From NCBI GenBank assembly GCA_036939755.1, contig JALLAZ010000041.1:1-28597 (forward strand): a DNA stretch of 28,597 bases. The letters are read 5' to 3'. Origin of the DNA: Stephanodiscus triporus. Taxonomy: Eukaryota > Bacillariophyta > Thalassiosirophyceae > Thalassiosirales > Thalassiosiraceae. The position numbers and the translations under genes are program-made. Shown here piece by piece: positions 9,599 through 15,358 of this stretch (its first letter is position 1; each line of letters begins with the position of its first letter). The notes beneath the pieces were generated by a model, which saw only the letters and a list, made by a program, of their open reading frames with translations, searched no databases and was not told where the DNA came from.

Positions 9599-10177
9599 CT
9601 ATTCTTTCACTACTCGTAGTACTAATACTACTAGTGCAAGCTGTATGAGACAGGCACTCTCTACCACTACTGTTGTGGGATGTCGGAGTTGACAACAACG
9701 ACAATGACAACGACAACAACAACAACAATGACAATGACAACAACAACGAGCAATATGCAGGAGCTTGTCGATGATGCCGCTGGACAATGCCAAAGACATC
9801 TCTTTTTCACCCAACAGAGAGATGTCGATCATCAACGTAGCTATCCTTATTTGAGACGTAGATGACTTGAGCTTTTCACCCTTACCAAGCTGTTGAAGAT
9901 GGCTCCACAGCATATCGATCGTGGACAGTACACGCTTCGCAATGATACCATCATGGTGCTTGCCCCAATCCCAACGACAGAGGGCCAGTAAGGAAGAATG
10001 GGCATCCGTGGCTACTCCCACTTGGTCGTTGCTGTTCAGACCAATGAGAAGCTTCGAAAGCGCCAACAGCAGGGTGTCACTGGCTAATATTGTGGTTTTC
10101 ATCTTGTTGATCCATCTCGTCAGACCTGCCGACATCATCCTTGTTATAATTGCAACCGTCGAAGCAGTCCAATGCAA
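9599..10177 (-). other. Helical ORF overlapping the 3' end of the zinc-repeat gene (possible gene fragment)
   Basis: A 192-codon minus-strand ORF runs in a different frame from the last 33 codons of the zinc-repeat gene and continues about 480 bases past its stop. From about 10080 to 9770 it reads like amphipathic helices (LLLALSKLLIGLNSNDQVG, VLSTIDMLWSHLQQLGKG, IRIATLMIDISLLGEKEM, SGIIDKLLHIA), similar in texture to ARM/HEAT repeats. It then runs into a Cys/His-encoding trinucleotide repeat. Its first codon is TTG, so any real coding segment would be an exon or a fragment, not a complete gene. I cannot identify a parent family. It could be a decayed duplicate or a spliced exon. Confidence 0.3.
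9691..9748. repeat. aac/gac/atg trinucleotide repeat
   Basis: An imperfect trinucleotide microsatellite built of acaacg, acaatg and aacaac units. On the minus strand it encodes a Cys/His/Arg run that is unlikely to be a real zinc domain. Confidence 0.8.
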
Positions 10178-12437
10178 TGGAAAATCTCCTCTTCACCTCC
10201 ACCGACTGTGGCATTTTCTTGCATATTGGCTCGTGCCGCCCATTGCTTCTGATGCCGACGGCCTTTCGCTTTTGATTAGAGGATGACGCCACGTCTCTTA
10301 TCCTTGACTGCAGCGCTTGGAGGGAGTACCGATACCGTATCCGCCCGGGCGGGACGTCCTCTTCTATGAATACTCTGCCCTTCTCAGCGGTGGGGATCAA
10401 GACGGAATAAAGGGTCGTCGTCCCGCCGCGATATTGATTCGACGGCTTCACGTTTATGATCTCTCCTTCCATTTCGGAGCTCCCATTATCATCCGCCATC
10501 CTCACAAGCACCGGACAGCAAATGGCGAACGCGATCTCCCCCTCCGAAATCGCGCTGCGACGTTTGCCAGATCCTATCCCTCTCGTCGAGGGATCCCCCT
10601 CCACCTCGTACATCATCGTTTGAGTTTGCGGATCGAACGCAACGGACCTCACGATGCCCGTGTCTGCCGTGAGGTTCCTCGAACACGGAATCGAACGTCG
10701 CATGTTGAACCAAACAGGACATCCCACCGGGTACAGGGCCCATTGGGGCGGTCCCTCCGTCCATGGCGATTTAGCCGATCCCCCTTCCTTGGTGAACTCG
10801 TTTTCCTCCGCCGCGGCGGAGTCCTCCTCCACTGCAGCAGTGGCACACCCGCAGGTGGACTCGGCCGGCGGCCTCCCCACTCCCTCCTCATCTTCCCGCG
10901 CGACGACGTCCCAGTTCGCCGCACCCACGTTCCGATCCTCCAGATGCATGGCCCCCAACGACGCAGTTCCATCATCCCCGATCGTTGTCTGATGCGCGGC
11001 GGACGGCAACGGAAGGCCGCCCCCCTCTTGCAATCCCCCCCCCTCACCGAAGCGACGACGACAACGGGGACGACGGTGGTCCACCTTCGAATCGGAATTC
11101 TCATCATCGTCGTCAATGACAATGACATCGACGAAAGGACGATGTTGAGGGCGAGGATGAAGGGGAACAGTAGGGACGTGGGCCGTGGGCCGTCGACGCG
11201 GCAGCACCATTACTTCAACTTCGTCTTTGTCTTCGACGTCGACGTCGATGGCGGCGAGGCACGTTTTCCCGTGCTCCTCCACCACCTCCCCCATTGTGAG
11301 GAAGCGCCCCACGCCGCGGACGTCGCGAACGCATGACGCGACGCCAGCGTCAAGCGGCCTCGCACACCCTCCCAATGTCGACGCGGTCGCGCACTCCTCG
11401 TCGCAATCGTCCTCCTCGGGAGGTAGAGCTCTCGGATTCGTCGGGGATGTCCCCCCCGCCGCCCCGTCCACGTCGACAACTGCGGCCAGGCACGCCCTCT
11501 CGTGCTTCTCTGCCTCCTCCATCGTGGGGAAGCGCGCGACGCCGCATATGTCGCAGACATACGACACGACATAAGGACGCCGAGGTCGCTCGTCGCAATC
11601 GTCTTCGACCCGATCGTTGACGTCGGGGGGGGACCCGTCCGGGAGGTCCGTGACCCTTGCGAGACCCACGCCCCCCCTCGAACGACGCGGGCCATCCTCA
11701 TCGTCTTCCACGGTCTCGTAGGTGTACTCAGAGTCGTCATCGTCTTCGCCGTCATCTTCATCGTCGTCGTCATCGCCGTCGTTGTCATCTTCATCGTCGT
11801 CGTCGTCGTCGTCATCGTCGTCGCTGTTGCGCTCCAGTACAGCGAGCGCCCTGAGGGCGATGCCGCTCGGCGACTTACCACTCACATCCCTCACTCGCGC
11901 CCCCCTCGGCCCGCCGATATCCCCGCCCCTTCCGACAATAGCGCCGCCAGTCGCGGCTTGGTCTCGCTCGGCGGGCCGAGGAGGCGGATCAACCTTGCCC
12001 GGGGCGGCGATGAGATACTTCGCACCGTGCCTTTTGCAAACTCCGCCCTTAACGGCTCCATTGGTGCACCCCTCATGGCTGCAGAGTATTATCTTCACCT
12101 TCGCGCCGTGTCTGTAGCAAACTCCTCCCATGAGGCTTCTGTTGGTGCACCCCTCGTGGCTGCATCGTTTCCTCTTTGCGCCGTGCCCGACACAAACTCC
12201 GCCCTGAACGGCAAAATTGGTGCACCCCTCGTGGCTGCAGCGTTTCTTCTTCGCGCCATGCCTGAAACAAACTCCTCCCTCTCTGCCAATATTGGTGCAT
12301 CCCTCATGGCTGCAGCCGTACTGGTAGCGTGTCTTCTCCACGCCGTGCCTCATACAAACTTTTACCTCTTGATCGTCGTTGTCGTCCTCTCCCGGCGGGT
12401 CGGGGGAGTGATCAGGGAGCGATCCCGTGCGGTTCAT
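10077..12437 (-). CDS. WRKY19-like zinc-repeat protein
   Basis: This single-exon ORF of 786 residues starts at the ATG at 12437 (MNRTGSLPDH). Residues 28-140 hold a half unit (VCMRHG) and four full units of the form CSHEGCTN-x6-GGVC-x2-HGAK, a C-x4-C-x9-C-x2-H pattern, with first cysteines at residues 42, 67, 92 and 119. Such units occur in WRKY19-like proteins and are common in diatom genomes. There they probably bind zinc, but their role is not established. An Asp tract follows (about residues 206-236). Residues 295-316 form a possible C2H2/C2HC finger (Cys295, Cys298, His312, Cys316), and a second copy near 370-393 has lost its first two cysteines. Residues 566-700 (WALYPVGCPVWF to RVFIEEDVPPGRIRYR) look like a folded beta-rich module. 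The C-terminus is basic. A nuclear or nucleic-acid-binding role is an inference. Confidence 0.82.
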   Translation of the reverse strand: MNRTGSLPDHSPDPPGEDDNDDQEVKVCMRHGVEKTRYQYGCSHEGCTNIGREGGVCFRHGAKKKRCSHEGCTNFAVQGGVCVGHGAKRKRCSHEGCTNRSLMGGVCYRHGAKVKIILCSHEGCTNGAVKGGVCKRHGAKYLIAAPGKVDPPPRPAERDQAATGGAIVGRGGDIGGPRGARVRDVSGKSPSGIALRALAVLERNSDDDDDDDDDDEDDNDGDDDDDEDDGEDDDDSEYTYETVEDDEDGPRRSRGGVGLARVTDLPDGSPPDVNDRVEDDCDERPRRPYVVSYVCDICGVARFPTMEEAEKHERACLAAVVDVDGAAGGTSPTNPRALPPEEDDCDEECATASTLGGCARPLDAGVASCVRDVRGVGRFLTMGEVVEEHGKTCLAAIDVDVEDKDEVEVMVLPRRRPTAHVPTVPLHPRPQHRPFVDVIVIDDDDENSDSKVDHRRPRCRRRFGEGGGLQEGGGLPLPSAAHQTTIGDDGTASLGAMHLEDRNVGAANWDVVAREDEEGVGRPPAESTCGCATAAVEEDSAAAEENEFTKEGGSAKSPWTEGPPQWALYPVGCPVWFNMRRSIPCSRNLTADTGIVRSVAFDPQTQTMMYEVEGDPSTRGIGSGKRRSAISEGEIAFAICCPVLVRMADDNGSSEMEGEIINVKPSNQYRGGTTTLYSVLIPTAEKGRVFIEEDVPPGRIRYRYSLQALQSRIRDVASSSNQKRKAVGIRSNGRHEPICKKMPQSVEVKRRFSIALDCFDGCNYNKDDVGRSDEMDQQDENHNISQ
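11736..11822. repeat. tcg/tca-rich tract encoding poly-Asp/Glu
   Basis: A run of TCG, TCA and TCT triplets on the plus strand encodes an uninterrupted acidic region in the zinc-repeat protein on the minus strand. It also opens long false ORFs on the plus strand. Confidence 0.8.
12018..12356 (-). repeat. Tandem coding repeats of the CSHEGCTN zinc unit
   Basis: Four full units spaced 75, 75 and 81 bases apart, plus a leading half unit, are visible as repeated ggtgcacccctcgtggctgc-like blocks on the plus strand. They are well conserved in DNA as well as protein, which suggests recent tandem duplication or gene conversion. Confidence 0.85.
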
Positions 12438-12649: not shown

Positions 12650-14034
12650 ATGGGTCCGGCCGATGCGGCCCCGGACGACGATGAGGACTCGATCGTCCCT
12701 CCCGACGCTCGTCAATGTCGTCTTCGTCGTAGTCATCGTCGTCAACGCCCGAACGAAGATCTCGTCGTCAGCGTCCGTCTTCGTCCCGCATCGACGAACG
12801 ACGGGGGGGGCAGGACGACGAGGAGGGCCCCGCTCGTGCCGATCGTCCTCCTCCGACTCGCGTCGACGACTGCCGCCGCGGCACATCGGCTCGAGGACGA
12901 TCCCCTCCTCCGTGCGTGCGTCAGGCGGCTGCTCGTCGGGAGGGTGGTGTCCCGTCCCTGGACGGGCGAGGGCGAGGTTGACGACGACGACGACGACCGC
13001 GGCGAGACGATCGTGCTGCGCGTGCCGAGGCCGGGCGGTCGTCGTGTGGACGACGACGACGGCGGCGGCGGAATTCTGGAGTTTGTCGTGATCAAAGTTG
13101 AGGCCGCCATCGGGAAAACTGGGAAGGTCGCGAAGGACCTCGTCGTGGTGCCTAGCACGAGGATCGTCTTTCTACCTTCGTCCGCGGACGACGGCGATGG
13201 CGTCGTTGCCACGCCAGCCCCCCCGCCGATTTCTTCGTTGTCATCGTCGTCGTCGTCGTCAGGAACTGTCGCTCCCGCCCCGCACGAGCTCTTGGTGGAT
13301 TGCCTTAGGTCGATACTTTCCCTCCATTTGTCGCCATTTGAAGGAGAAGAAGAAGACGGCTACGACGTCGACGATCGATGACAATGGTGCGGGCGGTGAC
13401 ATCGGCGTCGACGTCCCACCTTCCCCCACTCCTTCCTCCTCTCTGGCCCACCGGGCGTGGGCAAGACCCGCTTGGTGAGGACGGCGGTCGACATCGGGAA
13501 CGCGTCCTTGTTGTGGCCACGACCAATCGCGTCGACGCCATCCCTGATTGTCTGCAATGGCCCAGACGGCTGGAGAGGGAGATTGTCGTACGACCGCCTG
13601 ATGCGGACGGGAGGTACGCGCTGTTGAGAGACATGCTGCACGAGGTCGACGATGACGGTGGCGATCTTGAGGGGGGCCTGCGGGGTGTCGCCAACCCATG
13701 CATCGGCTACGTTGCGGCCGACCTGTTGGTGCTGGTGCAAAGGGCCGCCCAGCTTGCGGTGGAGGGGGCAAGGGGGGGGGTCGGGGGTCGCGGTGGACCA
13801 ATGCGCCATCCCGGGATGACCGCGAGAGACCTGACATCGGCCATGGCCGACATTGGCGCGTTGTGCCTGCGGGATGCGGCGATCTCCGCCCCGCCGGAGA
13901 CATTGTGGGACGACGTCGCCGGCGATGCCGGGGGGGCAAAGCGCACGCTTCGTGAGGCAATCGAGTGGCCAAAGACGCGCCAGAGCGCGTTCGAGGTGCT
14001 AGGACTGTTCCCCCCCCACGGCGTCCTTCTACAG
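12650..14034 (+). pseudogene. Cdc48/AFG2 (SPATA5)-type AAA+ ATPase, internally deleted and frame-disrupted
   Basis: The parts of a two-ring AAA+ ATPase appear in the right order but incomplete. The frame from ATG 12650 gives an N-domain-like region ending VVVPSTRIVFLP and PHELLVDCLRSILSLHLSP, then stops at 13379. The first Walker A, FLLSGPPGVGKTRLVRTAVD, is at 13433-13492 in that same frame, after a second in-frame stop. The next recognisable part, VLVVATTNRVDAIPDCL (sensor-1 region), starts at about 13501 in another frame. About 100 residues including Walker B are absent between them. The end of ring 1 (GYVAADLLVLVQRAAQLA) and the start of ring 2 (LWDDVAGDAGGAKRTLREAI and FPPHGVLL) follow without a break to 14031. 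The second Walker A and all the rest are missing, and MutY sequence begins instead. Full-length AFG2 is about 780-900 residues. As written, this cannot be a working ATPase. Confidence 0.75.
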
Positions 14035-15358
14035 GCTCGACTGCTGCACGCCGGCGCGAGGCGCGTCATGAACAAGTACGGCGGCATCGTGACCGACTCG
14101 GTGTCCGAGCTATTGAAGGTCGAGGGCGTGGGGAGGTACATGGCATTGGCGATCGCGAGCATCGCGTACAGCGTCAAGGTGCCGGTCGTGGATGGCAACA
14201 TCTGCCGCGTGCTCTGTCGACTGACAGGCGTCGCGAACCACATTAAGGCGGGCGTGCTGAAGGACGACCTTGGATGGACCCTCGCGGATAGGATCATCCG
14301 AGCCGGGACACCGCCGGGGGGGGGGGAGAAAGGCGCCGGTCGCGGCTCCCCGGGCGAGGTGAACCAGGCGCTGATGGAACTCGGCGCGACCTACTGCTCC
14401 CCCAACGGGAGCGGCATCGACGACGGCGATCCGCTCAGGGAATTTTACGTTTCCACCCGGCTGGGCGTCGCCATCGGACGCGCCGTGCGTGACGCCGCCG
14501 ACAGGGGTCGCGTGGAGAGTCTCGTCGCGAGCAAATTTGCGTCGTCGGGGGACAAGGGGGAAGGCCGTTGTCGCCTGTGCGATCCGGGCGGAATGTTTAC
14601 CGCGTACTACGATATCGTGGACCGGATAGACGCCGACTCGGGCATCAGCTCGAAGGCGCGACGAGAGAATGCGTACGCCATCGCCGGCCACTCGTCCATA
14701 CCCATATCTCCACCAAAGAAGAGTAAGAGGGAGGAGGTGATCGCCGTCGCGGTGATTAGTTTGCGGGTTTCAAACAATGATCGTCATTGGCTCATGGCGA
14801 AGCGGCCTTCGGAGGGCTTGCTTGCTGGTAAGTGTGTGTGGAGCCTTCTTCCTAGAGCAGTATTTGTACTGAGGACTCTCAGCTGAGTCTGTGTTTCTTT
14901 TTTTTTCTCTTCAATTGTCAGGTCAGTGGGAGTTTCCATCAGTGTGCCTCTGGAACTCGGCCGAGCAGGCGAAGGGGAAAGGAAACGAAAAAGCTGGCAA
15001 GCCCCCAACTGTTGCAGTCCCGCTCATTGATCCCGATTTAAGATCAGACGCACTCAATTCTTTTTTGACTGATATATTCGAATCCAGCGATGATTATTCC
15101 TCGGTCACCTTTGAAAAGAGGGTGCAGATTAAGGATGCTGTCGTCCACGTCTTTTCTCACGTGTCCCACACCATGTGGGTTGAGCACGGCGAGGTCGAAG
15201 CCGCCGTTGACGACCTGTCACTCCTGTCCAAAAGATGGAAACTCAATGGGCGAGAAATTGGCTGGATGACTGAAGGTGACATGGAATCTTTTGGCATTAC
15301 ATCGGGCGTGCGTAAGGTCCTTGCTTTGACCCAACGATGTATTACATCTCTAGCCTAA
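14035..15358 (+). CDS. MUTYH: MutY-type adenine DNA glycosylase, N-terminally truncated, fused in frame to the AAA+ remnant
   Basis: MutY/MUTYH removes adenine mispaired with 8-oxoguanine in base excision repair. The coding parts are 14035-14827 and 14922-15358, with a 94-nt intron (GTAAGT donor, TTGTCAG acceptor) that joins GLLA to GQWEFPS. Homology starts at ARLLHAGARRVMNKYGG. It continues through the helix-hairpin-helix VEGVGRYMALAIASIAYS, the catalytic aspartate in VVDGNICRVLCRL (codon at 14191) and NQALMELGATYC. Cluster-type cysteines are at 14395 and in CRLC (14569-14580), separated by an insertion. The C-terminal NUDIX-like 8-oxoG recognition domain is complete (HWLMAKRPSEGLLAG and VVHVFSHV). 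Missing are the N-terminal helices with the catalytic Glu (family motif around LQQTQV) and an obvious fourth cluster cysteine. The frame is open upstream to 13378 through the AAA+ remnant. The locus is convergent with the kinase gene, 108 bp away. Confidence 0.8.
14828..14921 (+). other. Intron in the MutY gene
   Basis: GTAAGT donor, a strong polypyrimidine run (14895-14910) and a TTGTCAG acceptor. The intron is phase 1 and splicing restores the conserved LLAGQWEFPS motif. It contains an in-frame stop, so it must be removed. Confidence 0.9.

What the first reader, a model, noticed from the sequence alone, without database searches (positions are those of the whole stretch)
12650..15358. Chimeric locus: collapsed AAA+ ATPase running in frame into a headless MutY glycosylase
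Two unrelated families meet at about 14032-14035. Upstream is the start of the second ring of a Cdc48/AFG2-type ATPase (FPPHGVLL, where YGPPG should follow); downstream is MutY from ARLLHAGARRV on. Both are truncated at the same point, yet the frame stays open across it, giving a 502-codon ORF (13378-14886) that continues through a normal intron to the MutY end. The simplest history is one deletion that removed the ATPase second ring and the MutY N-terminus from two neighbouring same-strand genes. The alternatives are an assembly collapse between two GC-rich genes, or a true expressed fusion. A protein carrying the MutY 8-oxoG recognition domain on an ATPase remnant would be novel.
Basis: partly seen in the sequence, partly recalled or inferred. 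Interest (0 to 1): 0.85.

Follow-up and report, generated by a model that had tools for sequence, protein, structure and literature searches.

The report
Broken diatom ATPase–MutY pseudogene junction
In this diatom contig a wrecked ATPase gene happens to run in frame into a DNA-repair gene that has lost its catalytic front half; it looks like a decaying, deletion-scarred gene remnant (or an assembly fault) rather than a new working fusion protein.

Summary
The junction is in the sequence. AFG2-type ATPase homology ends at 14033 and MutY homology begins at 14034/14035. The frame stays open, and a GT-AG intron (14828-14921) leads to the normal MutY end at 15358.

A working fusion is not supported. 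The ATPase has a second internal deletion at about 13500, and its Walker A lies in another frame from the 502-codon ORF. The MutY part lacks residues 1-312 of its closest relative, including the catalytic-Glu motif. No homolog listed by my searches combines both families.

Another S. triporus record (P0001) has an intact MutY. The window differs from P0001 at 13 of 409 codons, all at 14068-14562; 11 of 14 inferred base changes are CpG transitions, and the remaining 233 codons have none at protein level. The ATPase remnant shows the same bias. A second, 5'-truncated AFG2 copy on contig C239 is also decayed and fixes the breakpoint to the base.

Best reading: a decayed, deletion-bearing copy or allele. 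Assembly chimerism cannot be excluded without reads.

The parts
12650..13381 (+). 5' part of the AFG2-like gene (243-codon ORF ending at TGA 13379-13381)
   Evidence: No Pfam or NCBIfam hit by itself; tblastn to P0121 343-572, P0124 302-537 and P0127 4-228 from 12815-12830 onward
13439..13468 (+). Ring-1 Walker A (LSGPPGVGKT) in the frame of the 12650 ORF, not of the 502-codon ORF
   Evidence: Three-frame translation
13498..13501 (.). Internal ATPase deletion point: Walker A side joins the VLVVATTNR side; GAAC can be read as belonging to either side
   Evidence: tblastn coordinates of relatives; residue positions
13498..14033 (+). Second half of ring 1, linker and first residues of ring 2 of the AFG2-like ATPase, CpG-decayed
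   Evidence: CDC48 family match; 51-63% identity to six AFG2-like relatives; 13 departures at 82 invariant columns, 9 of them CpG transitions
14033..14034 (.). ATPase/MutY breakpoint
   Evidence: Identity to C239 ends at 14033; MutY match from ARLLHAG at 14035
14035..14827 (+). MutY exon 1, lacking residues 1-312 of P0001; CpG transitions at 14068-14556
   Evidence: 13 of 264 codons differ from P0001
14828..14921 (+). GT-AG intron
14922..15358 (+). MutY exon 2 with NUDIX_4-like domain and stop
   Evidence: 0 residue differences to P0001; NUDIX_4 E 4.5e-4, below the curated cut-off

Best explanation
This is a decayed, non-functional stretch of Stephanodiscus triporus DNA. An AFG2-family AAA+ ATPase gene lost internal pieces by at least two deletions, and one of them joined the start of its second ring to the middle of a MutY gene. 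The remnant and the adjoining 5' part of MutY carry C-to-T and G-to-A changes mostly at CpG, the pattern expected of methyl-cytosine deamination or a repeat-directed process. The frame is open across the join by chance. Shown: both truncations, the exact breakpoint, the second deletion, the CpG bias, an intact MutY in another record of the species, and a second truncated, decayed ATPase copy. Inferred: that the deletion exists in the cell (as a second allele or duplicate), that methylation caused the transitions, and that no useful protein is made.
For: Exact breakpoint shared with ATPase copy C239. Second internal deletion and frame conflict. 11 of 14 base changes to P0001 are CpG transitions against 7.7% of possible missense changes; even among GC-to-AT transitions alone, 11 of 13 at CpG against 44% expected (p 0.003). 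Same bias in the ATPase remnant, 9 of 13 departures. The CpG footprint fades away from the join: 9 of 54, 2 of 49, then 0 of 64 possible CpG missense sites. C41/C239 overlap: 13 of 14 substitutions are transitions. Intact MutY in S. triporus P0001. No long repeat at either join that would explain a short-read misjoin.
Against: No reads or transcripts seen. P0001 is known as protein only, so silent sites could not be compared. No second copy of the MutY part in the held genome, so a duplicate is not shown, but only 21.65 of about 58 Mb is held. Exon 2 and the intron are undamaged and the frame is open, which fits a young event or a contig that passes from a decayed copy into the intact gene. 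The CpG bias on C239 is weaker (7 of 14 single-base departures). Low CpG o/e at 13501-14034 is unusual but not unique (5 of 311 windows as low).
Confidence: 0.58

Rival explanations
1. Assembly artefact: the short-read assembly joined pieces of different places or copies in a GC-rich region. One form is a switch from a decayed copy into the intact MutY gene near 14560-14600.
For: Fragmented assembly (15,611 sequences, N50 7,327; PMC12159174 passages). Another S. triporus record has an intact MutY on a 95,244-bp contig, longer than any sequence of the window's assembly. Differences to P0001 stop abruptly after 14562.
Against: No long shared word at 13500 or 14033. Neighbouring GC-rich ORFs such as the aldo/keto-reductase-like and 786-codon ORFs are long and open. 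A pure join error does not create clustered CpG transitions.
Confidence: 0.32
2. Simple single deletion between two neighbouring same-strand genes, otherwise intact.
For: Same strand, colinear order, sharp join.
Against: A second internal deletion, frame differences within the ATPase and clustered CpG transitions need more than one event. Adjacency of AFG2 and MutY in an intact genome could not be tested (searches found no S. triporus AFG2).
Confidence: 0.05
3. A true expressed fusion that tethers the MutY OG-recognition domain to an ATPase remnant.
For: Open frame over the join, intact splice sites, exon 2 unchanged.
Against: Catalytic front of MutY missing; arginine-finger motif changed; Walker A out of frame. 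None of 120 listed MutY-side hits has an AAA Pfam domain and none of 78 ATPase-side hits shows a MutY domain as printed. An open frame is not remarkable: 39% of simulations stay open at 10% change per CpG base.
Confidence: 0.03

Closest known systems
Stephanodiscus triporus MutY (P0001, ACHAW5_002653)
   Same: 396 of 409 residues identical from 14035 to the stop
   Different: P0001 is complete (721 aa; HhH-GPD, HHH, NUDIX_4); the window lacks its residues 1-312
AFG2 (SPATA5/Drg1) family AAA+ ATPases
   Same: The closest solved structures for relative P0121 are AFG2A and AFG2B, with CDC48/VCP close behind
   Different: The window keeps only the 5' part, Walker A, the second half of ring 1 and the first residues of ring 2
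Truncated AFG2 copy on contig C239 of the same genome
   Same: 112 bp overlap at 86.6%, decayed, truncated
   Different: It keeps ring 2 and the C-terminus, lacks everything before ring 2, and starts beside a 20-bp tandem repeat
CpG-decayed or repeat-induced-point-mutation-like pseudogenes
   Same: Clustered C-to-T and G-to-A changes at CpG in two related truncated copies
   Different: Fungal RIP acts premeiotically on duplicates (established knowledge); neither timing nor dependence on duplication is tested here. Diatom DNMT4 is described as related to fungal RID with moderate support, function unknown (PMC9998398, passages)

Membership tests
MutY / MUTYH adenine glycosylase | Complete HhH-GPD domain above cut-off | tested here: not met
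   PF00730 12.0 bits against a cut-off of 26.2 in the 502-codon ORF; not among the genome's PF00730 hits
MutY / MUTYH adenine glycosylase | Catalytic Glu motif (SEVMLQQT) | tested here: not met
   Present in P0001 and aligned to solved MutY, lies in the missing residues 1-312; role of the Glu from established knowledge
MutY / MUTYH adenine glycosylase | Catalytic Asp in VVDGN and C-terminal NUDIX-like domain | tested here: met
   VVDGN present in the window; exon 2 identical to P0001 in protein; NUDIX_4 itself below cut-off on exon 2 alone
AFG2 AAA+ ATPase | Two AAA rings, each with Walker A, Walker B and arginine finger | tested here: not met
   Ring 1 lacks the Walker A to second-homology segment and its RRPGR is QWPRR; ring 2 stops before its Walker A
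Conserved AFG2-MutY fusion | Homologs with both domains | tested here: not met
   0 of 120 listed (309 found), 0 of 78, 0 of 19, by Pfam lists as printed (some cut)
RIP-like hypermutated duplicate | Directional C-to-T/G-to-A transitions in a preferred context | tested here: met
   11 of 14 changes in MutY and 9 of 13 in the ATPase half are CpG transitions
RIP-like hypermutated duplicate | Acts on duplicated sequence | tested here: inconclusive
   ATPase: a second copy overlaps by 112 bp only; MutY: no second copy in the held part of the genome
RIP-like hypermutated duplicate | Methyltransferase-dependent, premeiotic | not testable with these tools
   Only the presence of C5-methyltransferase domains on 4 contigs was seen

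The most novel reading that the evidence does not exclude
Diatoms have a RIP-like or methylation-driven process that rapidly fills gene duplicates with CpG transitions, and this locus catches it spreading from a dead ATPase copy into the front of a DNA-repair gene in one S. triporus haplotype.
Probability: 0.13. Interest if true: 0.65.

Novelty: new member of a known kind. Interest (0 to 1): 0.27.

Why it matters
As a fusion protein it would be new, but the evidence speaks against that. If the junction is real, it is a young pseudogene or null allele of MutY, an antimutator gene, in a diatom. The local CpG-transition footprint (11 inferred changes within about 500 bp, none seen at protein level in the remaining 233 codons) would then be a sharp test case for methylation-driven or RIP-like mutation in diatoms, whose DNMT4 enzymes are described as related to fungal RID with unknown function (PMC9998398, passages read). 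If it is an artefact, it warns against gene-loss or fusion claims from this fragmented assembly.

Tried and rejected
Intact MutY elsewhere in the own genome: protein searches with the window fragment and with P0001 returned only C41 plus a weak hit on C332. This is not proof of loss: only 21.65 of about 58 Mb is held, and PF00562 gave a single hit, on the 80-kb contig C72.

AFG2 of S. triporus by protein search: no protein so named was listed among candidates of 393-1250 aa or 302-961 aa, so adjacency of AFG2 and MutY in an intact genome stays untested.

Conserved fusion in other diatoms: none seen; 189 of the 309 hits were not listed.

Repeats at the joins: the repeat finder showed mainly low-complexity and short families and no long shared word at 13500 or 14033 (20 of 28 direct families shown).

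Microhomology at the joins: GAAC at about 13498 fits either side, and TTCTAC could be shared at 14028-14032, but the DNA of the intact genes was not available, so this is not settled.

Iron-sulphur motif: the pattern was found in 0 of 120 MutY homologs, but it also found nothing in the three other HhH-GPD loci tried as controls, so that side result has no positive control.

Correction: my notebook checkpoint says 14 of 15 transitions for the C41/C239 overlap; one search shows 14 substitutions, 13 of them transitions, plus one gap. The correction is noted.

Literature: diatom plus repeat-induced point mutation (9 papers listed), diatom/CpG/deamination/TpG (20 of 265 listed) and AFG2/MutY/diatom/fusion (6 listed) showed no report of this locus or of CpG hypermutation in diatoms in the titles and abstract starts seen. 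That holds for this open-licence library only.

Full report
What is there. The ORF 13378-14886 has 502 codons. Its residues 35-219 match the CDC48 family and residues 206-343 the MutY family. After 14827 a GT-AG intron ends at 14921, and exon 2 runs to the stop at 15356-15358, restoring LLAGQWEFP. The closest solved structures to ATPase relative P0121 are AFG2A and AFG2B, with CDC48 close behind, so 'AFG2-type' is likely rather than proven.

The exact join. A second ATPase fragment lies on contig C239 of the same genome. It matches window 13923-14033 over 112 alignment columns at 86.6% and continues as ring 2 (CTTCTACA then TGGGCCGCC), while the window continues as MutY (CTTCTACA then GGCTCGACTG). 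The breakpoint is therefore 14033/14034 without visible filler. That the ATPase frame leads into the MutY frame would happen by chance one time in three.

More than one deletion. Walker A (13439-13468) sits in the frame of the 12650 ORF, behind two TGA codons; the next homology (ERVLVVATTNR, from 13498) sits in the frame of the 502-codon ORF. Between these points relatives have about 108 residues (P0121) to about 157 residues (P0128) that the window lacks. P0121 and P0124 also carry about 340 and 300 N-terminal residues without a match upstream of 12815, but P0127 starts close to the window's start, so a third loss is uncertain. The first ~40 codons of the reported ORF are out-of-frame sequence.

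What MutY lost. P0001, annotated ACHAW5_002653 of Stephanodiscus triporus, has 721 residues and HhH-GPD, HHH and NUDIX_4 domains above their cut-offs. The window lacks its residues 1-312. The lost part holds SEVMLQQT, aligned to the corresponding motif of solved MutY structures (the role of its Glu is established knowledge). In the window HhH-GPD falls below the curated cut-off. A protein from this ORF could not be a normal adenine glycosylase.

Which genome. Contig C60 of the own genome is 85,084 bp. A published table gives the S. triporus assembly as 15,611 sequences, 58 Mb, N50 7,327, longest sequence 85,084 (PMC12159174, passages). The window's MutY is identical to S. triporus P0001 at 396 of 409 residues. 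I therefore take the window as S. triporus; this is an inference from contig length and protein identity. P0001 lies on a 95,244-bp contig, so it comes from a different assembly. The held set is 21.65 Mb in 1,324 contigs, and every contig length printed exceeds 10 kb, so it is probably the long-contig subset. PF00562 hits only C72, whereas MutS_V hits six contigs. Absence of an intact MutY from the held part is weak evidence.

The mutation footprint. From 14035 on, window and P0001 align without gaps: 13 of 264 exon-1 codons differ and no residue of exon 2 differs. The 13 codons need 14 base changes: 11 CpG transitions, 2 other G-to-A and 1 C-to-A. Earlier codons were inferred by fewest changes, ties broken towards CpG, neighbours held as now; the rule prefers CpG only where two earlier codons are equally close. 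CpG transitions are 130 of 1,688 possible missense changes (7.7%); binomial p 1.6e-10. That null has no transition bias; among the 13 GC-to-AT transitions alone, 11 at CpG against an expected 44% gives p 0.003. All differences lie at 14068-14562. CpG changes per possible CpG missense site are 9 of 54 at 14035-14340, 2 of 49 at 14341-14600, and 0 of 37 plus 0 of 27 beyond (Fisher near against far p 6e-4). At 172 well-conserved MutY columns the window departs 15 times and P0001 9 times. P0001 is known only as protein, so silent changes are unseen.

The ATPase remnant. At 82 columns where all aligned relatives (at least 10 of up to 14) agree, the window departs 13 times: 9 CpG transitions, 2 other G-to-A and 2 T-to-G, one of the latter in the junction codon itself (against 44% expected among its 11 GC-to-AT transitions, p 0.012). 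Hits include the arginine-finger motif (RRPGR to QWPRR; the name of the motif is recalled). CpG o/e at 13501-14034 is 1.06; 5 of 311 GC-rich windows from this genome are as low (mean 1.36), and 1 of 311 reaches its TpG+CpA to CpG ratio (windows overlap and come from loci chosen for other reasons). On C239, 15 departures at 148 columns include 7 CpG transitions among 14 single-base changes, a weaker bias. The C41/C239 overlap has 14 substitutions, 13 of them transitions, and one single-base gap. C239 begins its ATPase match next to a 20-bp tandem repeat.

Reading. Two truncated, decayed ATPase copies and an intact MutY in another record of the species point to a decaying copy or allele rather than a new protein. 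Because the footprint stops near 14560 and the rest of MutY is unchanged in protein, either the event is young and the mutagenic process local, or the contig passes from a decayed copy into the intact gene. No second copy of the MutY part was found in the held genome. A RIP-like process is an attractive but untested cause: diatom DNMT4 enzymes are described as related to fungal RID with moderate support and unknown function (PMC9998398, passages), and C5-methyltransferase domains occur on four contigs here. No reads were available to exclude assembly or base-calling causes.

Fusion test. None of the 120 listed MutY-side hits (of 309) has an AAA Pfam domain, and their query coverage does not exceed 68%, against 65% for the MutY part alone. 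None of the 78 hits or the 19 shows a MutY Pfam domain as printed, though some long domain lists are cut. An open frame after CpG hits is not remarkable: in simulation 64%, 39% and 13% of sequences stay open at 5%, 10% and 20% change per CpG base.

Verdict. What remains is a scarred pseudogene or allele, or an assembly fault, with a CpG footprint that reads could settle.

Noticed in passing
window 14395-14600 and homologs P0001-P0120: MutY homologs of this diatom-type set lack the usual C-x6-C-x2-C-x5-C iron-sulphur motif: 0 of 120; a CxLC motif remains in 96 of 120. Resembles the 'clusterless' MutYs mentioned in PMC11078426 (passage). No positive control for the pattern in my loci.
   Followed up: partly
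window 11912-12384, inside ORF 10077-12437 (-): Zinc-finger-like CSHEGCTN repeat ORF belongs to a large repeated family: 92 further matches in the held genome, most to this stretch.
   Followed up: no
G000 contig C239 (L037:8258-8341): A 5'-truncated AFG2 ring-2 fragment begins beside a 20-bp tandem repeat.
   Followed up: partly
G000 contigs C644, C159, C1158, C102: C5 cytosine methyltransferase domains (PF00145) on four contigs; not checked for DNMT type or bacterial contamination.
   Followed up: no
window 1-28597: Strong GC mosaic: 1-kb windows range from 0.41 to 0.67 GC, with GC-rich blocks at about 1.5-5.5 kb, 10.5-14.5 kb and 26-28.5 kb.
   Followed up: no
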